Source of the DNA: Alphaproteobacteria bacterium
Lineage (GTDB): Bacteria; Pseudomonadota; Alphaproteobacteria; UBA7985; JAUIBT01
DNA length: 49,751 nucleotides
NCBI GenBank assembly: GCA_030428565.1
Contig: JAUIDR010000022.1
Span: 1 to 49,751, forward strand
Direction of reading: 5' to 3'
A program made the position numbers and the translations under genes. Each line of letters begins with the position of its first letter. The stretch's first letter is position 1. Positions 136 through 42,326 of this stretch are shown here, piece after piece. Below the pieces are notes generated by a model that made no database searches, had not been told where the DNA came from, and saw only the letters and a program-made list of their open reading frames with translations.

Positions 136-1260
136 ATGACCGATCCGCTTTGCATTGTTGCGGTCGATTTTTGGCCGCTGCGCATTCCCTTAGCGCGTCC
201 CTACCGCTTGTCATCGCACTACGGCACGCTAACCCACGGCCAAGCGGTCTTGCTGCGAGTGACACTGGCCAACGGTGTCGTTGGCTGGGGAGAAGCCGAC
301 CCGCACGCCGAATTTGACGGCTACACGCTGGAAGGGGTGATCGAGGCGCTCAAGTCCCGGGCGCCCCAACTTCTCGGGGTCTCGGTCGCAGATTGGGTCG
401 AGCAAGGCTTGGGGCTACAACACGAGGGCTCGCCGTCGGCGGCTATCGACGTGGCTTGCTTTGACGCCCTAGCGCGCGCGCGCGGCGTTCCGGTGCATGC
501 GCTTGTCGGCGCGCGCCAGCACGAGGGCATAGACTCGCTCTGGCCGACCTCAAACGGTGAGGCAAGCGACGACTTGGCCGTCATTGACGAATACGCCGCC
601 AAGGGGTTCAAGACCTACATGCTCAAGATGGGCGACCGTCCCATTGAGGCCGAGATCGAGCGCTCAAAAGCGGTGATGGCGGCCAAGCCCGGCGAAGTCA
701 AAATCATGGTGGATGCCAATCAGGGTTGGAGCCGCGAAGAGGCGCAGCGCTATGCCGAGGGTGCGGGCGATCTGCCAATCGTTTTGATCGAACAGCCCCT
801 GGCGGCTGACGATTTGGAGGGCCTGGCGGCTTTGTGCCGGGCAAGCAAGTTGCCGATTTCGGTCGATGAGTCGCTGCAGAGTCGGCGCTCTGTCGATGCG
901 ATCTTGCGAGCCGGGGCGGGCGATGTGTTCAGCATCAAAATCTCCAAGAACGGCGGCCTAGCCAACAGCCGCGCCATCGGCCAAGCGGTCGAGGCCGCGG
1001 GCAAGCACATCTTGATGAACTCCATGATTGAGCTGGGCGTCACCCAAGCGGCCTCCTTGCAACTGGGGGTCACTTTCAAAGCCTTGGCGCCGTGCGGGCA
1101 CGCCTACATGTCTTGCTTGCGCATGGCTGACGATGTGACCGACTTTGCCGATTGCCTTGTCAATGGTCGCGCCTATCTGCGCGATGCGCCGGGGCTGGGC
1201 ATTCAGGTGCATTTGGAAAAAATCCAACAATATCAGATTGGTGACTATCATGTCGGCTAA
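136..1260 (+). CDS. Enolase-superfamily epimerase / cycloisomerase (mandelate racemase-muconate lactonizing type)
   Basis: A 374-residue protein of the mandelate racemase/muconate lactonizing branch of the enolase superfamily. These cytoplasmic Mg2+ enzymes abstract a proton alpha to a carboxylate. An N-terminal capping domain (about 1-125) is followed by the barrel. Visible ligands and catalytic positions are K164, metal ligands D193 (VDANQGW), E219 (EQPL) and D244 (DES), and K268 in KISKNGG. Lysines on both faces (K164, K268) are what 1,1-proton transfer (epimerisation or racemisation) or cycloisomerisation needs. The usual first lysine of the KxK motif is M162 here. It overlaps the permease gene by 11 bp and heads an operon with a peptide-type importer and a flavin oxidase. 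I infer that it flips the stereocentre of an imported dipeptide, opine or imino acid. The substrate is not readable from sequence; dipeptide epimerase and betaine/proline-type epimerase are the main alternatives. Confidence 0.85.
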   Translation: MTDPLCIVAVDFWPLRIPLARPYRLSSHYGTLTHGQAVLLRVTLANGVVGWGEADPHAEFDGYTLEGVIEALKSRAPQLLGVSVADWVEQGLGLQHEGSPSAAIDVACFDALARARGVPVHALVGARQHEGIDSLWPTSNGEASDDLAVIDEYAAKGFKTYMLKMGDRPIEAEIERSKAVMAAKPGEVKIMVDANQGWSREEAQRYAEGAGDLPIVLIEQPLAADDLEGLAALCRASKLPISVDESLQSRRSVDAILRAGAGDVFSIKISKNGGLANSRAIGQAVEAAGKHILMNSMIELGVTQAASLQLGVTFKALAPCGHAYMSCLRMADDVTDFADCLVNGRAYLRDAPGLGIQVHLEKIQQYQIGDYHVG

Positions 1261-2149
1261 CGCCATGTCTCGATCGTTACGAAAGCTGGGGCTTGGCCTC
1301 AAAGAGCACTACGGCATTATTGCCACCAACAAACTCAGCCTGCTGGGCTTTTGGATTATCGTGCTGTTCACCTTGGTCGCGGCCTTCGCCCCCTGGATCG
1401 CGCCGCACGAGCCTTGGGAGATGCTGTTTGACAGCAAAGGTGAATTTGCCGCCTTGCGGGCGCCGTCTTGGGAGTTCCCATTCGGGACCACCCACCTGGG
1501 TTATGATCTTTATTCCCAACTCGTCCTTGCGACCCGCACGACGCTGTTAATTGGGGCAACCTCGGGCTTCATCTCCATCATCATCGGCGCCAACATCGGC
1601 CTGATCGCCGGTTACTACGGCGGCAAGGTGGACGAGGTGCTGATGCGTCTGACCGACATCCTCTATGGCATGCCCTTCTTGCCCTTCATCATCATCTTGA
1701 TCGCGCTGTTTGGCCGTAAGCTTGAGTTTGTCATCTTGGCAATTGTCCTGATTATTTGGCGGACTTCGGCGCGTGTGATCCGTGCGCAGACCATCGCCAT
1801 CAAGCAGCGCCAGTTTATCGCCATGGCGCGCGCCAGAGGCGCCAGCGACCTGCGCATCATCTATGTCCACATCCTGCCCAACGTACTGCCCCTGCTGCTG
1901 TTATACGCGGCCTTCAATATCGCGTGGTCGATCATCACCGAGGCCAGCGCCAGCTTCTTGGGCTTTGGCGACGGTGAGACCATCAGTTGGGGCGGCATGC
2001 TCTATGAGTTGTGGCTGTCGGGCAAAACGCGGGTCGCCTGGTGGTGGTTTGCAACGCCTTCGGTCTGCATCATCTTGCTTGTGACCTCGCTGGTCTTTGT
2101 CAGCCGCGCTTATGAAGAAGTGGCCAACCCCCGTCTGCGCAAAAGGTAG
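1250..2149 (+). CDS. Peptide/opine-type ABC transporter permease (DppC/OppC family)
   Basis: A 299-residue inner-membrane permease of the DppC/OppC type. The ATG at 1250 overlaps the end of the epimerase gene by 11 bp; an in-frame ATG at 1265 is the alternative. One hydrophobic segment near residues 28-50 precedes a periplasmic stretch. The five-helix BPD_transp_1 core follows, carrying the cytoplasmic EAA-like loop (MARARGASDLRIIYVHILP) that docks on the ATPases. The DppC family normally pairs with a DppB-type permease and a periplasmic binding protein. Neither is in this window, so they probably lie to the left. Two ATPase genes follow within 7 bp, so assignment to this importer is secure; the substrate is inferred only from the oxidase genes downstream. 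Confidence 0.88.
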   Translation: MSANAMSRSLRKLGLGLKEHYGIIATNKLSLLGFWIIVLFTLVAAFAPWIAPHEPWEMLFDSKGEFAALRAPSWEFPFGTTHLGYDLYSQLVLATRTTLLIGATSGFISIIIGANIGLIAGYYGGKVDEVLMRLTDILYGMPFLPFIIILIALFGRKLEFVILAIVLIIWRTSARVIRAQTIAIKQRQFIAMARARGASDLRIIYVHILPNVLPLLLLYAAFNIAWSIITEASASFLGFGDGETISWGGMLYELWLSGKTRVAWWWFATPSVCIILLVTSLVFVSRAYEEVANPRLRKR

Positions 2150-2155
2150 CCTTCC

Positions 2156-3193
2156 ATGCAAGCTCCCAAGACTGAAACCAAACAACCCTTGCTGTCGGTG
2201 CGTAACCTGGGCGTGGCCTATAAGACCGCCCAAGGCCCTGTCCACGCGGTCAGCAACATATCCTTTGATTTGGCTGAGAACGAGGTCTTTGGCATCGCGG
2301 GTGAATCGGGCTGCGGCAAGTCCACGCTCATTCGCTCCTTGCTGCGCCTGCTGCCGGATAGCGCGACGGTCAGCGCTGACGCCTGTCTCTATCGTGGGCA
2401 GGATCTTATGGGGTTGCCCGATGCCCGTTTTCGCAAGGATATCTTGTGGAGTGAGATTTCGCTGGTCCCGCAGAGCGCTATGGCGTCGTTTAACCCGGTC
2501 TATCGGGTCGGGGACCAGATCATTGAATCGATCCGCGCCCATAAGAGCGTCAGCAAAGCCGAAGCGCGCGAGCGTTGTAAAGCGCTGTTCGATGTCGTGG
2601 GGCTGGAAGCGGGATTACTCGACAGTTTCCCGCATGAGTTTTCGGGCGGTATGCGCCAACGCGCTATGATCGCCATGGCGCTGTCGCTCGATCCGGGCCT
2701 GATCGTCATGGACGAGCCGACGACCGGCCTCGATGTGCTTGTGCAAGAGCGGATTTTGCGGCGCATCCGCGAAATTCGTAGCGAAATCAAAAGCTCGATC
2801 ATTTTGATTACCCACGACATCGCGGTGATTGCGGAAATGAGCGACCGCATCGCCATTATGTACGGCGGTGAATTCATGGAACAGGCCAGCGCGGTCGATC
2901 TGTTTGAACAGCCCTACCATCCATATACTCTGGGGCTGAAGAACGCCTTTCCGTCTATTCGCAACATCGGCGCAGAGCTGATCTCTATACCCGGCTCGCC
3001 GCCGACCTTGATTGGGCCCCTGCAATCCTGCCCCTTTGCGCCGCGCTGTCCCTTTGCGGTCGCGGCCTGCCGCAGTGCAAACCCAGAAATCGTAGGCCTG
3101 GAAGGTGGTCAACACCAGGTTCGTTGCGTCCGACACGCTGATGCCGTGGGCTTCCGCGAGCAGGCAAAGGAGAAAGCTGTATGGCAATTCTAG
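2156..3193 (+). CDS. Peptide/opine-type ABC transporter ATPase (DppD/OppD family)
   Basis: A 345-residue cytoplasmic ATPase. It has Walker A GESGCGKST at 49-57, the Q-loop in LVPQSA, signature SGGMRQR from S163, Walker B ending D186-E187 (VMDEP) and switch histidine H220. The C-terminal extension carries the cysteine-rich oligopeptide/dipeptide element (CPFAPRCPFA), which separates this family from other importer ATPases and, in characterised members, binds an iron-sulphur cluster or helps dimer contact. It starts 6 bp after the permease stop and overlaps the next ATPase gene by 13 bp, which indicates translational coupling. It should form a heterodimer with the product of that gene. Confidence 0.9.
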   Translation: MQAPKTETKQPLLSVRNLGVAYKTAQGPVHAVSNISFDLAENEVFGIAGESGCGKSTLIRSLLRLLPDSATVSADACLYRGQDLMGLPDARFRKDILWSEISLVPQSAMASFNPVYRVGDQIIESIRAHKSVSKAEARERCKALFDVVGLEAGLLDSFPHEFSGGMRQRAMIAMALSLDPGLIVMDEPTTGLDVLVQERILRRIREIRSEIKSSIILITHDIAVIAEMSDRIAIMYGGEFMEQASAVDLFEQPYHPYTLGLKNAFPSIRNIGAELISIPGSPPTLIGPLQSCPFAPRCPFAVAACRSANPEIVGLEGGQHQVRCVRHADAVGFREQAKEKAVWQF

Positions 3194-4179
3194 AATTGGC
3201 CAACCTAAGCCGGCACTTTGAAATCCGCCCAGGCCTATTGGATCGCGCCTTCAAGGGTAAAGCGTCGAGCTATATCAAGGCCGTCCAGGGCCTGAATGTC
3301 ACGGTCGAAGACAACGAGATATTGGGCATCGCGGGTGAATCGGGCTGTGGCAAGTCTACCACCTGCACCATGATATCGGCCCTGATGGAGCCAAGCGACG
3401 GCGATATTCGCTTTAAGGGCCGCTCGATTTTGGGCTTGAAAGGCAAGGCGCTGAAGGACTATCGCCGCAGCGTGCAGATGATCTTTCAAGACCCCTACGA
3501 ATCGCTCAACCCGCGCTTTCGCATCGCTGATATCGTGGCCGAAGGGCCGCGAGCACTGGGGCTGTGGCGCGGTGAGGAGCTGGACCGGCGGGTCCATGCC
3601 ATTTTGTCCGCCGTGGGTCTGCCGCCAGCGAAATATGCTGAGCGCTTCCCGCATGAGCTGAGCGGCGGCGAACGCCAACGTGTTGGTATCGCCAGCGCGC
3701 TCATCATGGAGCCGGAGATGATTATCGCTGACGAGCCGCTGTCCATGCTGGATGTCTCGATCCGCGCCGGTATCTTGGACTTGATGCGAGACATGCAAGC
3801 GCAAAAGGGCTTTGCGAGCATCTATGTCTCGCATGATTTGTCGATCTTGGGCAACGTCGCTGATCGCATCTTGATTATGTACCTGGGCCAAGCCATGGAA
3901 GTTGGCCCGGCGCGCGAAGTCATCTTGAACCCCAAACATCCTTATACCAAAGCCTTGATTGGCGCTGTTCCCGTTCCTGACCCGCGTTCACGGCGGGCCG
4001 TTCCCAATGTGCGCGGTGATCTTTCCAAGCCGATTGATCCGCCGCCAGGCTGCCGGTTTGCGCCGCGCTGTCCTCACGCCGATGAGAGCTGCAAGACCAA
4101 ATTCATCGCCCTGGATACGCAAGACCCGCAAAAGCACCAAGCCGCCTGTCACAAGCTTGCGGAAATCGGACATGGCTAG
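3181..4179 (+). CDS. Peptide/opine-type ABC transporter ATPase (DppF/OppF family)
   Basis: A 332-residue partner ATPase. Walker A GESGCGKST is at 52-60. Signature LSGGERQR, Walker B (IIADEPLSMLD), switch YVSHD and the C-terminal oligopeptide-transporter cysteine element (CRFAPRCPHADESC) are all present. The start ATG at 3181 lies inside the preceding gene behind a purine-rich AAAGGAGAAAG stretch, a strong ribosome-binding site. It ends 8 bp inside the next gene, a flavoprotein, so transporter and oxidase are co-translated. That physical coupling is the best evidence that the importer brings in the oxidase substrate. Confidence 0.9.
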   Translation: MAILELANLSRHFEIRPGLLDRAFKGKASSYIKAVQGLNVTVEDNEILGIAGESGCGKSTTCTMISALMEPSDGDIRFKGRSILGLKGKALKDYRRSVQMIFQDPYESLNPRFRIADIVAEGPRALGLWRGEELDRRVHAILSAVGLPPAKYAERFPHELSGGERQRVGIASALIMEPEMIIADEPLSMLDVSIRAGILDLMRDMQAQKGFASIYVSHDLSILGNVADRILIMYLGQAMEVGPAREVILNPKHPYTKALIGAVPVPDPRSRRAVPNVRGDLSKPIDPPPGCRFAPRCPHADESCKTKFIALDTQDPQKHQAACHKLAEIGHG

Positions 4180-5323
4180 CAGCACACTGGGGGCGCAAGC
4201 CCCTACGCGATCCTGCGATATTGCCGTCATTGGTGGCGGTCTGTTGGGTTCCGCCTTCGGCTGGGGCTTGGCGCGGCGCGGTCAAGTCTGCCAGGTTTTC
4301 GATGAGGGCGACACGGCGGTGCGCACGGCACGGGGCAATTTCGGCTTGGTCTGGGTGCAGGGCAAAGGTCTGGGCATGGGCCGCTATGCGCGCTGGTCTT
4401 TGCAGGCCTCGCGCCTGTGGCGGGGTTTTGCCGATGAGCTGGAGGCGGCAACGGGCTTAGACCTGGCCTATTCGCGCGGCGGTCTGCGCTTTGCACACAG
4501 CGAGCAGGACTTGCAGGCGACGGTCAACAATCTCAAGCAGATTCAATCCGATATGGTCGAAGAGGCCTATCAATTCGAAACGCTTGAACACAGCGCGCTG
4601 AAAAAGCGTCTGCCCCTGGTCGGCGATATCGCGGGCGCGACCTTCTGCGAGCACGACGGACACTGTAATCCGCTCATGCTGCTGCGCGCGCTGCACCAGG
4701 ATATGCAGCGTTTGGGCGCAACCTATCGCCCCAATACCAAGGTTGAGCGGATTGAGCCGTTGGCGGGGGGCGGCTATCGTCTGTTGGACGGGCAAGGCGA
4801 GCGGCTCTGCGAGGCGGAAAAGCTGGTCATTGCGGCAGGGCACGGTTCGCGCGCGCTGGCCGAGCAGAGCGGGATCGAACTGCCCATTCATGCCGATCAA
4901 GGCCAGGTCATCGTGACGGAAAAGGTAGCAAGCGCCTTTAGCTATACCTCTGATATCATTCGCCAAACGGACAACGGCAGCTTTTTGCTGGGGGCCTCCA
5001 GCCGGGATGTTGGCATGGATACGCGCACCGACCTGTCGACGCTGGGCCAGATTGCGCGTGAGTGCGTGCAGGTCTTTCCCTTTTTGCGCCAGCTTCGCAT
5101 GCAGCGCGCTTGGGGGGCGGTGCGGGTCATGACGCCCGATGGTTTCCCCGTCTACCAGCATTCTAAGAGCTACCCCGGCGTATTTTCCTTCGCCTGCCAT
5201 TCGGGCGTCACACTGGCGGCCTGCCATGCCTTGGAGGCCGCGCAATGGGTGATCGACGGCGCGATCCCGTCTGACTTCGACGACTTCCACCCCAAGAGGT
5301 TCCATGTTCAAGCGTCTATCTGA
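4172..5323 (+). CDS. FAD-dependent amino-acid/opine oxidase catalytic subunit (DAO family, HcnC/OoxB/LhpB-like)
   Basis: A 383-residue flavoprotein of the D-amino-acid oxidase (DAO) fold. The dinucleotide-binding motif is GGGLLG at 21-26. The C-terminal DAO signature region contains FACHSGVTLAACHALEAA. The frame is open upstream to 3959, but the ATG at 4172, overlapping the ATPase gene by 8 bp, starts 16 residues before the Rossmann motif and is the sensible start. Neighbouring genes for a small [2Fe-2S] protein and a FAD/NAD protein with a BFD cluster match the composition of bacterial heteromeric opine oxidase, hydrogen cyanide synthase and D-hydroxyproline dehydrogenase. In those enzymes this subunit oxidises the amino-acid C-N bond and passes electrons to the others. 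Exact substrate unknown. Confidence 0.85.
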   Translation: MASSTLGAQAPTRSCDIAVIGGGLLGSAFGWGLARRGQVCQVFDEGDTAVRTARGNFGLVWVQGKGLGMGRYARWSLQASRLWRGFADELEAATGLDLAYSRGGLRFAHSEQDLQATVNNLKQIQSDMVEEAYQFETLEHSALKKRLPLVGDIAGATFCEHDGHCNPLMLLRALHQDMQRLGATYRPNTKVERIEPLAGGGYRLLDGQGERLCEAEKLVIAAGHGSRALAEQSGIELPIHADQGQVIVTEKVASAFSYTSDIIRQTDNGSFLLGASSRDVGMDTRTDLSTLGQIARECVQVFPFLRQLRMQRAWGAVRVMTPDGFPVYQHSKSYPGVFSFACHSGVTLAACHALEAAQWVIDGAIPSDFDDFHPKRFHVQASI

Positions 5324-5612
5324 GCCCAAAGCGCCCGTGACCTTCGAATTCGAGGGCCAGCCTCTAAAGGGCGAAGCGGGGGAGAGCATCGCCGCTGCCT
5401 TATTGGCTGCGGGTATCATAGACCTGCGTCGCTCGGGCGAGGACGACAGCCCTCGCGGTCCTTATTGTATGATCGGCAACTGCTTTGAGTGCCTGGTGTG
5501 GATCGAGGGGCAAGGAAGCCGCCAAGCCTGTCGCGAGCCCGCTCGCGAGGGCTTGAAGCTACGCCGCCACCCGGGGCGGCCCGATCCCCAAGCATTTGGA
5601 GGCGGCTCATGA
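5304..5612 (+). CDS. [2Fe-2S] ferredoxin-like subunit of amino-acid/opine oxidase (HcnA/LhpF-like)
   Basis: A 102-residue protein consisting of little more than a Fer2_4-type domain. The cluster cysteines are C55, C60, C63 and C76, giving CX4CX2CX12C, with the context GPYCMIGNCFECLV typical of the small subunit of HcnABC-type enzymes and of the N-terminus of sarcosine oxidase alpha. It overlaps the DAO-subunit gene by 20 bp and the next gene by 4 bp (ATGA). Such overlaps imply fixed subunit stoichiometry. Role by family: an electron relay between the two flavin subunits. The last 20 or so residues are Arg/Pro/Gly-rich and probably flexible. Confidence 0.88.
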   Translation: MFKRLSEPKAPVTFEFEGQPLKGEAGESIAAALLAAGIIDLRRSGEDDSPRGPYCMIGNCFECLVWIEGQGSRQACREPAREGLKLRRHPGRPDPQAFGGGS

Positions 5613-7051
5613 TCCACAAGGTTGATATAGCTATCATCGGCGCAGGGCCGGCGGGGATGAGTCTGGCACAGTCGCTGGTCAGCGGCGATGAAAAGACCCG
5701 GCCGCCGAGCGTTGCCGTCATTGATGAGCAAAAAGATGGCGGCGGGCAAGTCTACCGAGCCGCTTTGCGTCAGGCGCCCGATTTGGCCAGCGTCCTTGGC
5801 CAGGAGTATCAAAGCGCGCGGCCTTGGCTGCAAGAGGCCAGTCAGAACCCGGACATCCAATTTTATTTTAGGACAAGTGCTTGGAATATCGAGCCTCGCG
5901 AAGATGGCGTGGAACTTGCGCTGGTCAGCGCGGGGCGAAATTGGCGTCTGCGCGCCAAGCGGCTGGTGCTGGCAAGCGGCGCCATGGAGCGGCCAACGCC
6001 CTTCTCTGGCTGGCAAACGCCGGGCGTTATGACGATGGGCGCGGCGCAGACCTTGATGAAAGACGCCGGTTTGGTCCCCGACCAACCGCTGGTCTTGCTG
6101 GGCTCTGGGCCGCTGCTCTATTTGTTCGCCAAGCAATTGCTGCAAAGCGGGGTGTCGATCCAAGCGGTTCTGCACACCGGCCCGCGCGGGCTTCGCGCTG
6201 CGGCTTGGGCTGCCTTTTGGGCGGCGCTGCCGGGCAATTTTTCGCCTCTGGGCAAGGGCTTGCTGTGGCGGATGCAGCTGGCGCTGGCGCGGGTGCCACA
6301 GGTGTTTAACGTTGCTGAAGTGGTGGCACAACCCGATCCCCAAGACACAGCGGGCGGGCTTGGCGCCTTGCGATACCGGGTCGGGGGCCATTGGCACACG
6401 CTGCAAACGGGACTGGTTCTGGTCCACGATGGAGTGGTGCCCAACACCCACCTAGCGGCGGCCTGCGGCTGTTCTTTGACGTGGGATCAACAGCAAGCCT
6501 GCTGGCGGCCCGAGCTGGATGAGACGGGCCGCAGCAGTCAGTCCCAAATCTGGGCGCTGGGCGACGGCGCGCGCATCATGGGCAGCGAAGCCGCGCGTTG
6601 GCAAGGGGTGGCGATGGCGCCCGCTCTGCTGGAAAGCTTGGGATATCAGCCGAGCGCTGCAAACTTGGCGCGTTGTCAGGAGGCTCAGCGCCGCCTTGCT
6701 CCGCTGCAACGCTTGCGCCGGTTCTTAGATGCGCAGTTTCCGCCCGCTGGGGCCTTTAGCGAAATCAGCGATGACACGCAAGTGTGCCGTTGCGAAGCCA
6801 TTTCAGCCGGAGAAATTCGGCGCATTGCGGGCTTGGGTTGCAGTGGGGTGAACCAAGCGCGTAGCTTTACCCGTGTGGGAATGGGCCCCTGCATGGGCCG
6901 CCAGTGTGGCGCCAGCGTTGCCAAAGTTCTGGCTGGTGCGCAGGGAAAGCCGCAGAGCGCCTTGGGCTATTTTACGGTGCGATTGCCGCTCAAGCCGGTC
7001 ACGGTGGGCGATCTTTGCGCGCTGGAGGCTGACGCTCCGGCGTCTGGCTAG
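5609..7051 (+). CDS. FAD/NAD(P)-binding subunit with BFD-type [2Fe-2S] domain (HcnB/OoxA/LhpE-like)
   Basis: A 480-residue pyridine-nucleotide-disulphide-type flavoprotein. The first Rossmann motif is GAGPAG at 11-16 and the second nucleotide-binding motif is GSG at 165-167. The C-terminal quarter carries a bacterioferritin-associated-ferredoxin-like cluster site with C393, C395, C428 and C433 (VCRCE ... GPCMGRQC). This domain order matches the alpha subunit of opine oxidase, HcnB and D-hydroxyproline dehydrogenase. A longer frame open from 5489 exists, but the ATG at 5609 gives the family-standard N-terminus and an ATGA junction. Likely role: accept electrons from the DAO and [2Fe-2S] subunits and deliver them to the respiratory chain. 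It is the last gene of the operon. Confidence 0.87.
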   Translation: MIHKVDIAIIGAGPAGMSLAQSLVSGDEKTRPPSVAVIDEQKDGGGQVYRAALRQAPDLASVLGQEYQSARPWLQEASQNPDIQFYFRTSAWNIEPREDGVELALVSAGRNWRLRAKRLVLASGAMERPTPFSGWQTPGVMTMGAAQTLMKDAGLVPDQPLVLLGSGPLLYLFAKQLLQSGVSIQAVLHTGPRGLRAAAWAAFWAALPGNFSPLGKGLLWRMQLALARVPQVFNVAEVVAQPDPQDTAGGLGALRYRVGGHWHTLQTGLVLVHDGVVPNTHLAAACGCSLTWDQQQACWRPELDETGRSSQSQIWALGDGARIMGSEAARWQGVAMAPALLESLGYQPSAANLARCQEAQRRLAPLQRLRRFLDAQFPPAGAFSEISDDTQVCRCEAISAGEIRRIAGLGCSGVNQARSFTRVGMGPCMGRQCGASVAKVLAGAQGKPQSALGYFTVRLPLKPVTVGDLCALEADAPASG

Positions 7052-7174: not shown

Positions 7175-8386
7175 CTAGGCGGGGATCGCCGTGGCCGCGG
7201 CTTGGCGTGACCAAAAGTGCTTGTAGTTCAACGCGAAGACCAGTGCGATGGTGACAAGCTGTACGGCAATCGCAAACCAAGTCAGGCCCCAATAGACCGC
7301 GCCAAACTTGGCGATGATACCCGCAGCCACCAAGCCTTTGTTGATCCAAAATTGCAGCATAATGGAAAAGGCGACGCCAGGACAGACGAGCGTATAGGAG
7401 CCTGCCGAAGCCTGAGGCCCGAACACGAAGTCACGCAGATAGTGGTTGCGGATCAAGGTGGTGATTCCGAACATTAAGATGGCGACCTGCAGTACGAGCG
7501 CCCCTGTCAGCATTTGAAAGGTGCCAGCTGCGCTGGTGTGTGCGTCCGCGAAGACGTGCAAGCCGTGTTGCTGGCGCATCCAGGTGATGGCCATGACGGT
7601 AATAACGGGCACCAAAATCATCAAGGTCGGCGCGGCTTGGCGATTGAGGCCCTGGTCCAGCATGGAATGGAAGCCCAATACCAGCTTGAATGAAATCAGC
7701 ACGACCGCCGTCAAAAGGAAGAAGCTCGACAGGACGTAGGAGGTCATGGCAGTGGCTTTTAGGCTGCTCATGGCCGCAGGAGCGGCCAAGCCGACGCCGA
7801 CCATGGCAAGAGAGAAAGCGGGCAATAGTTGGGCTAGGCTGTTGTTCTCGCTGATTTTAAAGCCACCGTTTACCAAGACGCGTGACCAAAATCGGCCGAT
7901 GCGGCGCAGCGCCCAAAAACCAATGGCCAAAAAAGCGAGCATGGCTAGCGGGAATAGATACTCGACCAAGGACCACAAGCCCGGCACGAACAAGAGGCCA
8001 ACAATGAAGCCAACATTGACCGCCATGGCCGTCGCCAAAGGCGCGGCGACGAGTTGCGTCTCATTGTTGGAATTGATCAGGCTGGCGAAGGCCTGCGTCT
8101 TTGAGAAGGCCGTCAGTTGGCGCAGATTCCAAATCAGGAAATACAAGCTGAGAAGGGCAAAGACCGCCACGCCAGCGTAGCCCAAAATGATCCAGCTCTG
8201 CGTGGTTGAACTGGCGTTGGCGAAGACTTTGGCCACGTCCTCAAAAACGGGCACGACGCGACCGGGATGGGGGATCCAGAACAGGAACCACATGAAGAAG
8301 GTCACCACCAGGCCGCCGGCGCCCAAGGAGGTGAGAAAATAAAGAGGAGAGTAGCGCGACGGTGCTTGGCTCTGCATTTGGGACAT
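7175..8386 (-). CDS. Multi-spanning inner-membrane protein, TsoY-like
   Basis: A 403-residue hydrophobic protein with about ten predicted transmembrane segments. The N-terminal stretch RYSPLYFLTSLGAGGLVVTF and a following PHPG...VPVFEDV segment recall, from memory, the membrane family named TsoY (seleno)protein, whose members exist in Sec and Cys forms. If so, this is a Cys form, and C348 or so in YTLVCPGVAF is a candidate key residue. That link is inference. The frame stays open to 8662, but the ATG at 8386 sits behind an AGAAAG Shine-Dalgarno-like run and begins just before the conserved region. A strong terminator follows and an ATTC-N8-GAAT site precedes it, so it is probably a single regulated transcript. 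No biochemical role can be assigned from sequence. Confidence 0.6.
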   Translation of the reverse strand: MSQMQSQAPSRYSPLYFLTSLGAGGLVVTFFMWFLFWIPHPGRVVPVFEDVAKVFANASSTTQSWIILGYAGVAVFALLSLYFLIWNLRQLTAFSKTQAFASLINSNNETQLVAAPLATAMAVNVGFIVGLLFVPGLWSLVEYLFPLAMLAFLAIGFWALRRIGRFWSRVLVNGGFKISENNSLAQLLPAFSLAMVGVGLAAPAAMSSLKATAMTSYVLSSFFLLTAVVLISFKLVLGFHSMLDQGLNRQAAPTLMILVPVITVMAITWMRQQHGLHVFADAHTSAAGTFQMLTGALVLQVAILMFGITTLIRNHYLRDFVFGPQASAGSYTLVCPGVAFSIMLQFWINKGLVAAGIIAKFGAVYWGLTWFAIAVQLVTIALVFALNYKHFWSRQAAATAIPA

Positions 8387-8399
8387 GGTTATTCTTTCT

Positions 8400-8415
8400 A
8401 TTCGAATATGTGAAT
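8400..8415 (-). promoter_or_regulatory. Putative ArsR-family (SqrR/BigR-like) operator
   Basis: An ATTC-N8-GAAT dyad (ATTC at 8400-8403, GAAT at 8412-8415) lies 14 bp before the ATG at 8386. A perfect 10-bp palindrome, TATTCGAATA at 8399-8408, overlaps it. The dyad matches the consensus recalled for the sulphide/persulphide-responsive repressors SqrR/BigR/YgaV. Its position overlaps where a promoter or 5' leader would be, which suits repression. No such regulator gene is in the window. Confidence 0.4.
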
Positions 8416-8544
8416 ATACAAGAGATTTAACCCAGGCGCGCGAGGCATCAATAGCGTAGAAATCCGCAAGCAAATCACCGGTCTTAGGCGCTGGGGTGGC
8501 GCGGCCCTGGCCCAGCGGAACGCGCAGCGGTCGTGTCTTGGGGG

Positions 8545-8574
8545 GATCTGGCTTGATCTGGCTTGATCTGGCTT
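8545..8574. repeat. Three perfect 10-bp tandem repeats
   Basis: The unit gatctggctt occurs three times head to tail in the 425-bp gap between two divergent genes (8387-8811). Apart from the operator-like site, this repeat and the next one, I see no gene or RNA in that gap. Frames across it are open by chance on the minus strand. Confidence 0.9.
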
Positions 8575-8647
8575 GGCTGGGCCCCATCGGAAAGGCACGC
8601 GCTTGCGCGGCAACCAGGCCCTTAGCCAGCGTCCAAAAACAGCGTCT

Positions 8648-8673
8648 ATAACCAGGGACCATAACCAGGGACG
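8648..8673. repeat. Two 13-bp tandem repeats
   Basis: The unit ataaccagggacc is followed immediately by ataaccagggacg, a duplication with one mismatch. It lies in the same divergent gap, about 140 bp upstream of the start at 8812. Confidence 0.9.
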
Positions 8674-8811
8674 ATCACCGGCCAGCGCTTGCCGGGACCA
8701 ACCGCGAGCCGCCTGCATCATCATGGGCGATTGTCTTTCGCGGCTTCGGGTTTTACTACTAGAGGCCCCTGACCCACCGCTTGCATTCGCCGCCACGCAA
8801 GGAGCCCCGCC

Positions 8812-10842
8812 ATGGTCGAGCTGCCCCCGTCGAGCGCAGCCTTTTTCGTCGATCCGCAAGGCCGGTTTTCCGTCGACGGGCAGCCGCTTGGCGAGATGGT
8901 GAGCGCGAACGTTGACAGGTTCCAACGCCTCATTCGTCGCCATCAAATCCGCGTGCCACAGCGCTTGTCCCATCGCCGCCAGACCGGCCAGCTGTTGGTC
9001 GAGATGGGCCAGGGTGCCTACGCGGTGGCACGCATGCCCGACCGTGACGAAAGCGCCCTCAGCTCAAATCAATACGGGCGCTTGCTGGTCATTTTTTCGC
9101 GCGATCCGGCCGATCTGGACCCGGTGCATCTGCAAGCCAGCGCCTTTGAGCGGCTGTTTGCCGATGCGCATGTTGCGGGCCAGTCCGTCTTGCGCGAAAC
9201 GCTCAACCTGTGTCAGGTCAACGCGCGCGCTGCTAACCAAATCGAGGTGGTGGCCAACTTTGAAACGCCCAACGGCGAAGAAAACTTGCTGAGCCTAGAT
9301 GAGCTGCTGTCGGCGGTCTACGCGCATCACAAGACTTATTTGGACCGAAACCTAGACTTCCATTATCTCTATCGAACCGGGGTGCAAATCTTCGAAAACG
9401 ACGCGGTGCGCTTTGCGGTGCGCGCGCGACCACAGCTGTTTGATAGCGGCGCGGCTCAGACCTATGACATTCGTATAATTCTGGGCGATGGCTATGGTTC
9501 CAAGCTGCCCGATATCGACCATGATAAGAACATCGGCGCTCTGATCGCCCACATAGCAGAACGCGCGCTGTCGGGGGTCGAAGATCGCGATCACGTCATA
9601 CGCCCGCTGTTCAAGTGCTATTCTGAGGCCATGCGCTTTGGCCTGGCGCCAAGTGACATTAGCGTGTTGAGCAATCGGCCCGACCTGGTCCAGACCGTCG
9701 AAGACCTACACGTTCGCCGCCGCGGTGTGGGTGAGCGGATCTTGCAGATTATCCGTTACCCCCTGGTGCGCTTTTTCTCGAAAGTCTTGGCGCAAATGTC
9801 CAGTAAGGACCAGCAAAAGACGGGCATCATCCAGCTCTGCGTGCCGGTGCTTAGCGCGTTGAGTATTGCCACGCTGCAACTGCTGTTGCGCGGCATGCTG
9901 GCGGCGATCATAGCGGTCATTGTGAGCGTCTTTAATAACGTCTTTCGACTGTTCCGCCACACCACCAAGCGGGTCGTTATGCGCAGTGAAAATATCGACC
10001 TACTGAACCAGCCCGGCCGCTTCATCCACCCCTTGATGACTGAAAATTTCGACCAAAGCACACAAGGCCCGATCAATCCTGCGATCTTGCAAAATCTGGT
10101 CTACATCGATGCGCGTAACCCCGAAGAGGAGATCAGTTCAGAGGTGCATCCGTCTGAGCTGGCGCCCTCGGGTCCGCTGAGCGGGGCATCGGATGTGCTG
10201 GACCCGGCCTCGGCCTGCCATGGCGCGATTTATTCGCTGCTGCGATTTCAGGACGCGGCGGGCGTGTTGTCGCCAAACGAGATTTTGCACATCGAACAGC
10301 CCGCGCCACGATTTGGCTTTGATACCTTTCACATCTTTCATGATCTGCCTGAGCGTCCTCAGTGCCGCCGGGTCGCCTATTTGCGCGCACGCCCGGATTT
10401 GGCAAACGCCAGCGCGACGCCGATGGAAAAGGCCGTGCGCCGCATGTTTGAGTCCTTTGGCGAGGCAACCCGCCAAACCCTGTATCTTCGCATCAGTGAG
10501 GTGGAGGCCAGCGGCGTCTCGGTTGAAGCCTTGACGGCTGAGGCCTTTCTTCGCGATCTCGCCAAAGATGCCAGCGCGCCAACAGCCCGGGTCGATCGCC
10601 CCCAGATACGCGAACAAATGGCCGTTCTGGAGCGGTGGATCGAAGCGCAAGAGCAGATCAGGGATCTGGAGGCCGTTGAGCGCGGGCTCTGGGCGCGCTG
10701 TTGCCGCCGCTTGGGGCTGTTTAGAAGGCGGGCTTGGCGGCGCGCGACGCTGCGCCGAGAGACCCGAAAGAAACTGGCCGCCATTCAGAGCCGCGATTTG
10801 TGGTCTAATGAAACTACGGTCGCGCCGCCGCCCGAAAGCTAG
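8812..10842 (+). CDS. Unrecognised 676-residue protein with a central hydrophobic hairpin
   Basis: I do not recognise this family. The start ATG has a good ribosome-binding site (AAGGAGCCCCGCC). The first 330 residues are soluble-looking mixed alpha/beta sequence. Residues about 337-381 form one long hydrophobic tract, interrupted by an arginine, long enough for two membrane passes. The second half is soluble again, with a Pro/Ser/Glu-rich linker near 435-465. The C-terminal region about 595-665 is helical and very Arg-rich (WRRATLRRETRKK), suggesting a basic amphipathic tail. There is no signal peptide. Codon choice resembles that of its neighbours, so no foreign origin is evident. It is a lone gene, divergent from the membrane-protein gene at 8386 and convergent with the SDR gene. 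The sequence supports a membrane-anchored protein with soluble domains on one side; function unknown. Confidence 0.75.
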   Translation: MVELPPSSAAFFVDPQGRFSVDGQPLGEMVSANVDRFQRLIRRHQIRVPQRLSHRRQTGQLLVEMGQGAYAVARMPDRDESALSSNQYGRLLVIFSRDPADLDPVHLQASAFERLFADAHVAGQSVLRETLNLCQVNARAANQIEVVANFETPNGEENLLSLDELLSAVYAHHKTYLDRNLDFHYLYRTGVQIFENDAVRFAVRARPQLFDSGAAQTYDIRIILGDGYGSKLPDIDHDKNIGALIAHIAERALSGVEDRDHVIRPLFKCYSEAMRFGLAPSDISVLSNRPDLVQTVEDLHVRRRGVGERILQIIRYPLVRFFSKVLAQMSSKDQQKTGIIQLCVPVLSALSIATLQLLLRGMLAAIIAVIVSVFNNVFRLFRHTTKRVVMRSENIDLLNQPGRFIHPLMTENFDQSTQGPINPAILQNLVYIDARNPEEEISSEVHPSELAPSGPLSGASDVLDPASACHGAIYSLLRFQDAAGVLSPNEILHIEQPAPRFGFDTFHIFHDLPERPQCRRVAYLRARPDLANASATPMEKAVRRMFESFGEATRQTLYLRISEVEASGVSVEALTAEAFLRDLAKDASAPTARVDRPQIREQMAVLERWIEAQEQIRDLEAVERGLWARCCRRLGLFRRRAWRRATLRRETRKKLAAIQSRDLWSNETTVAPPPES

Positions 10843-11021
10843 GCCTGACAGCTGGGCCCGAAAGCTGGACCAAAGCGCGCCTTTCGTCTCATAGCCTGTT
10901 GCGCTGAATTGCATTCACCAGCGCCTCGAACCCTGGAATCGTGTCGGCCTTACCGCTCTGGCCACCTGATTTTTACCGCCAATCCAACGTCAGAATCGAG
11001 GGTGATTACTTGGGGTCTGCT

Positions 11022-11783
11022 CTAGATCGAGCCGCCTTCGACCATGAAGTTATTGGCGCTGCACATGCCCGCATCATCAGACGCCAAAAATACCACCATG
11101 CGTGCCACATAGACGGGCTCGATGGGGTCGGGCAGGCACTGGCGATCGACCTGCTTGGCCAGAGCCTCAGGTGTGACCCACAGCTCTTTTTGCCGCTCGG
11201 TCATGATCCAGCCCGGCACGACGGTGTTGACGCGGATGCGGTGCTTGCCCAGATCGCGCGCCATGCTGCGCGTCAAGCCGTGGACCGCCGCTTTGGCGGT
11301 TGTGTAGGCCGGAAATCCGCCGCCGGCTTCCCACCAAGAATTGGAGCCCATGTTGATGATGGCGCCGCCCCCGGCCGCGATCATTCCCGGTGCCACGGTT
11401 TGGATGGCAAAGAACATGTGGCGTAGGTTGGTGGCTTGGCGCTCGTCCCAGTATTCCGGGGTGACATCGCGCCAATCGTGGCGATCATCGCGCGCGGCGT
11501 TGTTGACCAGCACCTGCGCGGGGCCGATTTTTTCGGCGAGCTGCGCGAAGGCGCGGCGCAAGCTGTCGATATCGCGCAGATCGCAGGCCGCAAAGGCGTG
11601 CGGGCCGCCTTCAAGACTAGCACAAAGTGCTTCGCCGCCCTGTTGGTCGATATCGACAAAACCCACCTTTGCACCTTGAGCGGCAAAAGCTTTGACGATC
11701 TCAGCACCGATGCCAGATGCGCCGCCGCTGACAAAGACGCTCCGTCCTGACAAGCTGGGGTAGGTGGCAAAGTTGGGGCTCAT
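11022..11783 (-). CDS. SDR-family sugar 1-dehydrogenase, D-xylose dehydrogenase-like
   Basis: A 253-residue classical short-chain dehydrogenase. The cofactor motif SGGASGIG is at 19-26, with an acidic VDID end to the second strand favouring NAD+. NNAA follows, then catalytic S147, Y160 and K164 (YTTAK). Features such as YPSL...G, NDDRH/RDDRHDW-like, YWDER, NLRHM and FLASDDA closely match the Caulobacter D-xylose 1-dehydrogenase family as I remember it, in which the enzyme oxidises an aldose to its lactone. An AGGAGA ribosome-binding site precedes the ATG. It lies downstream of an acyl-CoA synthetase gene on the same strand. A monosaccharide importer about 2.4 kb away (14213 on) is a plausible supplier of substrate. 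Xylose, arabinose, galactose and fucose cannot be told apart here. Confidence 0.8.
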   Translation of the reverse strand: MSPNFATYPSLSGRSVFVSGGASGIGAEIVKAFAAQGAKVGFVDIDQQGGEALCASLEGGPHAFAACDLRDIDSLRRAFAQLAEKIGPAQVLVNNAARDDRHDWRDVTPEYWDERQATNLRHMFFAIQTVAPGMIAAGGGAIINMGSNSWWEAGGGFPAYTTAKAAVHGLTRSMARDLGKHRIRVNTVVPGWIMTERQKELWVTPEALAKQVDRQCLPDPIEPVYVARMVVFLASDDAGMCSANNFMVEGGSI

Positions 11784-42093: not shown

Positions 42094-42326
42094 GTACGAT
42101 CCCTATATCAAAGCCGCGTCGCTCAACGCGTTGCCGTAAGAAGGTTCGACAAATTTTGGAACGATCTAGAGCGTCGGGCACAGGTGTCGCAACAGCCCAT
42201 CCGCTCTAGCTGACTGATTTCTAACGTAAGACCATGCTCACTCGTGTTGCCACTCCTTCGCGGCTTGCGCTAACAGTCATGGGCCTTCGCAGCGGTGCTG
42301 GCTTATGGATTATCTAAGTCGCGATC

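What the first reader, a model, noticed from the sequence alone, without database searches (positions are those of the whole stretch)
8812..10842. Large orphan protein with central hydrophobic hairpin and Arg-rich tail
The 676 residues match no family I recognise. The gene has a good ribosome-binding site and normal codon use, so it is real. The layout (soluble - hydrophobic hairpin at 337-381 - soluble - basic helical tail) suggests membrane anchoring with both large domains on the cytoplasmic side.
Basis: partly seen in the sequence, partly recalled or inferred. Interest (0 to 1): 0.55.

Follow-up and report, generated by a model that had tools for sequence, protein, structure and literature searches.

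The report
Genus-restricted orphan hairpin membrane protein
This is a real, conserved bacterial gene for a large protein with a short membrane-embedded hairpin that we could find in only two related species and could not match to any known protein, so its job is still open.

Summary
Window 8812-10842 (+) is one 676-codon gene with a Shine-Dalgarno-like AAGGAG, host-like codon use, a single hydrophobic stretch (337-381) between basic flanks, and a basic tail. No Pfam, NCBIfam or PADLOC family and no acceptable PHROG or PDB match was found. The only relative found is a 726-residue protein, 73% identical, in one other genome of the same genus. The third genome of the genus (99% complete), 8 other genomes of the order, and draws of 385 class and 398 phylum genomes gave no credible match. 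The pair is under purifying selection (dN 0.21, dS about 2), and the hairpin is 91% identical. Neighbours differ completely between the two genomes and the divergent TsoY-family membrane gene is not shared, so the proposed linkage is not supported. AlphaFold2 models are unusable. Best reading: a lineage-specific, hairpin-anchored, cytoplasm-facing scaffold or regulator (0.40). Rivals: a known family diverged beyond recognition, or a conditional membrane-perforating effector. A genuine orphan; modest interest.

The parts
8812..10842 (+). orphan gene, 676 aa
   Evidence: open frame, host-like codon use, purifying selection against G001 homologue
8799..8804 (+). Shine-Dalgarno-like AAGGAG, 7 nt before the ATG
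   Evidence: sequence
8812..9711 (+). N-terminal soluble region, residues 1-300 (73% identical in 1-135, 82% in 136-300)
   Evidence: fold unknown
9712..9819 (+). basic amphipathic stretch before the hairpin, residues 301-336
   Evidence: 9 K/R against 2 D/E over 301-337
9820..9954 (+). hydrophobic hairpin, residues 337-381; likely turn R360-G361
   Evidence: 41 of 45 residues identical in G001, 4 conservative changes, 23 synonymous codon changes
9946..9984 (+). basic stretch closing the hairpin, residues 379-391
9997..10581 (+). C-terminal soluble region, residues 396-590
   Evidence: weak model only
10582..10791 (+). basic helical tail, residues 591-660 (19 K/R against 9 D/E), poorly conserved in sequence
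   Evidence: residues 541-676 are 49% identical
7175..8386 (-). divergent neighbour, TsoY family (seleno)protein; not shared with the relative, so not counted as part of the system
11022..11783 (-). convergent neighbour, short-chain dehydrogenase; not part of the system

Best explanation
A genus-restricted membrane-associated protein. Shown: one constrained gene with soluble - basic - hydrophobic hairpin - basic - soluble - basic tail layout in two species. Inferred: the hairpin (337-359, turn R360-G361, 362-381) dips into or crosses the inner membrane, with both basic flanks and both large regions in the cytoplasm. Inferred further: the two cytoplasmic regions bind partner proteins or a ligand, and the basic tail adds contact with anionic lipid or nucleic acid, so the protein works as a membrane-tethered scaffold or regulator. 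It is an accessory, lineage-specific trait and not part of a conserved operon. The biochemical activity is not known.
For: Purifying selection over the whole length, strongest in 136-395. The hairpin keeps 41 of 45 residues although 23 of its codons changed synonymously. Basic flanks on both sides satisfy the positive-inside rule for an N-in, C-in hairpin (rule recalled). No hydrophobic signal sequence at the start: no 19-residue window before 336 passes 1.3. Only one match in its own genome. Neighbours are metabolic and transport genes in both genomes, with no defence-specific neighbour among those searched.
Against: No structure, no expression data and no topology data. 'Scaffold' is the default for a protein with no recognised catalytic family, not a positive finding. 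The tail, to which I give a role, is the least conserved part (49% identity, dN 0.49 in 541-676), although it stays basic. Two sequences cannot show which residues are truly fixed.
Confidence: 0.4

Rival explanations
1. A member of a known family that has diverged beyond recognition by sequence. Fold and function would become obvious with a good structural model.
For: Profiles from only two similar sequences are weak (Neff 1.16 for the N-terminal half), and AlphaFold2 had only two sequences, so failure to match says little.
Against: No Pfam or NCBIfam match for the whole protein at E up to 10 or for its homologue; pieces gave only chance-level hits below any curated cut-off; no PDB match with profiles A1 and A2.
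Confidence: 0.25
2. A conditional membrane-perforating effector, such as an abortive-infection protein or a toxin. The hydrophobic hairpin is masked by the soluble regions until a trigger releases it, then inserts and dissipates the membrane potential.
For: Large soluble regions around one well-conserved hydrophobic hairpin with amphipathic basic helices. Insertion of a masked hairpin is described for colicin Ia and proposed for AopB (PMC9993115, passages seen). Membrane-acting phage-defence effectors with transmembrane segments exist (PMC10808066 and PMC12642688, seen in a search listing with abstract starts). Patchy presence at different sites in 2 of 3 genomes of the genus.
Against: No PADLOC match. 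Neighbours are metabolic and transport genes; the PADLOC hits among 10 neighbours searched fall on 2 ABC-transporter ATPases. No immunity gene or antitoxin-like partner beside it. No relatives in the plasmid or phage collections or in IMG/VR, whereas defence genes usually spread widely (recalled).
Confidence: 0.15
3. A substrate of a specialised secretion system that places the hairpin in a foreign membrane.
For: Type III translocators carry hydrophobic hairpins (PMC9993115, passages).
Against: No secretion gene recognised beside either copy.
Confidence: 0.05
4. Not a real gene: an open frame kept open by chance in GC-rich DNA.
For: No relatives found outside the genus.
Against: dN/dS about 0.1, changes concentrated at third positions (355 of 619), homologous frame with in-frame length changes only.
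Confidence: 0.01

Closest known systems
Taxonomically restricted (orphan) bacterial genes
   Same: No recognisable relatives outside a narrow taxon; patchy within the genus; function unknown.
   Different: Longer than most orphans (676 and 726 aa; that orphans are usually short is recalled) and under clear purifying selection.
Colicin-type pore-forming domains and type III translocators with a masked hydrophobic hairpin
   Same: One long hydrophobic helical hairpin inside a large soluble protein.
   Different: Hairpin is central and not C-terminal as in colicins (recalled); no recognised receptor or translocation domain, immunity gene or chaperone; no sequence match.
TM-hairpin phage-defence effectors (for example CRISPR-linked Cap1 and Cam1)
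   Same: Soluble region plus membrane helices.
   Different: No CARF or other sensor domain found and no PADLOC match; no defence genes recognised nearby.

Membership tests
Genus-restricted orphan gene | Real coding sequence under constraint | tested here: met
   dN 0.21, dS 2.1 (saturated) over 669 codons
Genus-restricted orphan gene | No relatives outside the genus | tested here: met
   Credible matches in 2 of 96, 2 of 11, 1 of 385 and 1 of 398 genomes, all in the genus. Limits: draws only; metagenome contigs not searched; the genome-contig scans matched short patterns only.
Genus-restricted orphan gene | No curated family match | tested here: met
   nothing reaching a curated cut-off, and nothing with E below 0.01, for this protein or its homologue
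Colicin-type pore former | Sequence match to a pore-forming domain family | tested here: not met
   no Pfam or NCBIfam match to such a family
Colicin-type pore former | Buried hairpin in a helical bundle that inserts into a membrane | not testable with these tools
   no confident model; needs biochemistry
Known anti-phage defence system | Match to a catalogued defence protein | tested here: not met
   0 families for both homologues at E up to 10
Known anti-phage defence system | Lies in a defence island | tested here: not met
   of 10 neighbours searched, 2 match PADLOC models and both are ABC-transporter ATPases by Pfam; the others matched none
Type III secreted membrane protein | Genome encodes the secretion system | not tested
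Any known fold | Structural match to PDB | tested here: inconclusive
   only residues 462-600 were searched, with a model of pLDDT 45.5: Foldseek best E 0.6, VIA best Z 3.3 (rmsd 5.6, 70 aligned)

The most novel reading that the evidence does not exclude
A new protein fold and a new class of conditional membrane-inserting effector: two cytoplasmic sensor-like regions hold a strongly conserved 45-residue hairpin that inserts on a trigger and depolarises the cell, born within one alphaproteobacterial genus and moved between loci.
Probability: 0.08. Interest if true: 0.65.

Novelty: new member of a known kind. Interest (0 to 1): 0.25.

Why it matters
Large constrained orphans are uncommon test cases for how new membrane proteins arise. 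With two diverged homologues, different genomic sites and a strongly conserved hairpin, this one can be tested directly for topology and toxicity. Otherwise it is one of many unknown genes in uncultured bacteria.

Tried and rejected
Family searches: Pfam, NCBIfam, PHROGs, PADLOC and PDB sequences, whole and in pieces, gave only chance-level hits. The best was phrog_31248, E 0.027, on the low-complexity insert of the G001 homologue.

Weak genome hits were followed up and rejected. One search (profile A1) listed 39 of 385 genomes at E up to 1, but most hits lie on or beside the proline/arginine-rich insert that only the G001 protein has, and only two candidates per genome were scored; so I repeated the draw with core profile A2 and with the protein itself. 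I re-scored 11 weak loci with blastp and phmmer and read 5 of them: none looks like a relative. L045 reads as a membrane protein, L018 as malate synthase, L040 as an antisense frame (names recalled). The G256 hit lies in a penicillin-binding-protein-like frame and the G373 hit in a frame antisense to a dehydrogenase (names recalled). The remaining weak loci were not read.

Internal duplication: by eye residues 90-122 resembled 556-590, but no tested segment pair passed p < 0.05 against 300 shuffles and hhalign of the two halves gave probability 0.1%. Rejected.

Linkage with TsoY: rejected. Mobile-element context: no tRNA in the window, no long flanking repeats at the gene, no Rfam match in L001 or L028; no promoter-like site and no more terminator-like sites than chance in 8386-11030.

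Structure: AlphaFold2 on the pair gave pLDDT 33; residues 462-600 gave pLDDT 45.5, pTM 0.50. Foldseek and VIA hits to proteasome, L11 and Cap2 chains are at noise level and are not used.

Literature: searches for the contig accession, TsoY, hydrophobic-hairpin orphans, bin names, orphan genes, defence effectors and the repeat listed nothing on this protein; only passages of PMC9993115 were read.

Full report
What was checked. GC3 is 0.707 against 0.68-0.76 for six neighbouring genes, and the true frame scores 0.18 per codon on the neighbours' codon table while the other five frames score between -0.18 and 0.06 (one of the six neighbour entries, 5604-7051, was entered out of frame).

Relatives. 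A search of 96 related genomes found a match in 2 of 96: the window's own genome G000 and G001, same genus. The G001 gene encodes 726 aa, 73% identical, and is the same contig as JAUIHE010000162.1, 'Alphaproteobacteria bacterium isolate Co_bin.199', a 6,260-base contig. In the order, 11 genomes were searched: 2 of 11 carry the gene; a third listed hit (G002, E 0.695) lies on the low-complexity insert. In a draw of 385 class genomes, 2 of 385 passed E 0.01 with core profile A2 (G000 and a chance hit) and 2 of 385 with the protein itself (G000 and a chance hit). In 398 phylum genomes, 8 of 398 passed E 0.1: G000 and seven weak ones at E about 0.02 or more. Nothing was found in phages, plasmids or IMG/VR. 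Limits: the two genome-contig scans match short peptide patterns only, and the first of them missed the 73% homologue; metagenomes were closed.

Families. No Pfam or NCBIfam family for the whole protein or its homologue; only chance-level hits for pieces, none near a cut-off. No acceptable PHROG or PADLOC family. PDB sequences: two phmmer hits at E 0.88 and 1.6 for the protein and none for profiles A1 and A2.

Selection. Over 669 aligned codons dN is 0.207 and dS 2.14 (saturated); differences by codon position are 164, 100 and 355. Identity is 73% (1-135), 82% (136-300), 85% (301-395), 79% (396-470), 80% (471-540) and 49% (541-676). The G001 protein carries an extra proline/arginine-rich insert, and its last residues are encoded by a dispersed repeat.

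Anatomy. Residues 337-381 are the only strongly hydrophobic stretch; shuffles reach it in 16 of 10,000. It keeps 41 of 45 residues in G001, the four changes being I340L, C343V, V344F and V373L, while 23 codons changed synonymously. Of 632 45-residue windows, 58 are at least as conserved, so the hairpin is among the best conserved parts but not alone. R360-G361 in the middle is a plausible turn. Residues 301-337 hold 9 K/R against 2 D/E, and 383-395 hold 3 K/R against 1 D/E. This fits a hairpin with both ends in the cytoplasm (positive-inside rule, recalled). The tail is basic (net +12 in 30 residues; 18 of 10,000 shuffles) and stays basic in G001 (+10), though its sequence drifts.

Context. 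In G000 the gene lies between a divergent TsoY-family gene and a convergent short-chain dehydrogenase, amid amino-acid oxidase-like, acyl-CoA synthetase and ABC-transporter genes. In G001 it lies 333 bases after an aldehyde dehydrogenase, itself preceded by a class-III aminotransferase (the dehydrogenase name is recalled from its sequence). G002 has that cluster (85% DNA identity), but the match stops at the end of the dehydrogenase and another gene follows, so this site lacks the orphan there. G000 has no close copy of that dehydrogenase (best 44%). Window flanks map to separate contigs in G001 and G002. The gene is therefore not tied to any neighbour. TsoY gave no match in G001 or G002 (the empty answer had no positive control, but one search also shows no DNA match there; G001 is 86% complete). 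Two dehydrogenase-bearing stretches compared across the three genomes show G000 and G001 at 76% and 80% DNA identity, and either of them against G002 at 67-68% in the main piece of the first stretch and 77% in the second. So vertical inheritance in the G000/G001 lineage, with a change of site, is a reasonable reading, but a weak one.

Structure. AlphaFold2 had two sequences only: pLDDT 33.4 for the whole and 45.5 (pTM 0.50) for residues 462-600. PDB comparison of the latter is at noise level. No statement about fold is justified.

How it probably works. Shown: a constrained, genus-restricted gene with the layout above. Inferred: hairpin insertion, cytoplasmic placement of both large regions, and a tethering or regulatory role. 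A conditional membrane-perforating role fits the same layout; nothing here decides between them. The reasons against it are the lack of defence, immunity or toxin-antitoxin context and no sign of spread on phages or plasmids.

Verdict. A true orphan, ordinary in kind (orphans are common in uncultured bacteria; recalled), notable for its length and its constrained hairpin. The linkage idea is not supported.

Noticed in passing
window 42166-42238; L028 6066-6138; L037 4370-4441; L058-L087: A dispersed repeat (about 73-76 bp matched, probably longer, beginning CTAGAGCGTCGGGC with GCTCTAG inside) has 41 matches in G000 and 44 in G001 (only 40 candidates scored each, so probably more; some G001 matches are partial tandem pieces) but 4 in G002, only one of them strong. 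No Rfam match in L028, which holds one copy.
   Followed up: partly
window 10945-10986: A degenerate 42-nt match (76%, E 0.006) to the same repeat lies about 100 bases after the orphan's stop; in G001 a copy overlaps the orphan's 3' end. Possibly chance, possibly an old shared copy.
   Followed up: partly
window 7175-8386 (-): TsoY family (seleno)protein (NF047644, 470 bits against cut-off 150), without a match in the two other genomes of the genus.
   Followed up: partly
L028 about 5490-5580: In-frame insert of PGRPDR-type repeats in the G001 homologue only, a small coding minisatellite.
   Followed up: no
window 10830-10871: Three tandem 13-base units (GCCCGAAAGCT-like) span the orphan's stop codon.
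   Followed up: no
window 136-7051: Enolase-superfamily gene, two oligopeptide-type ABC ATPases, an amino-acid oxidase-like gene and a sarcosine-oxidase-alpha-like gene in a row; looks like an amino-acid or betaine-type catabolic cluster (reading inferred).
   Followed up: no
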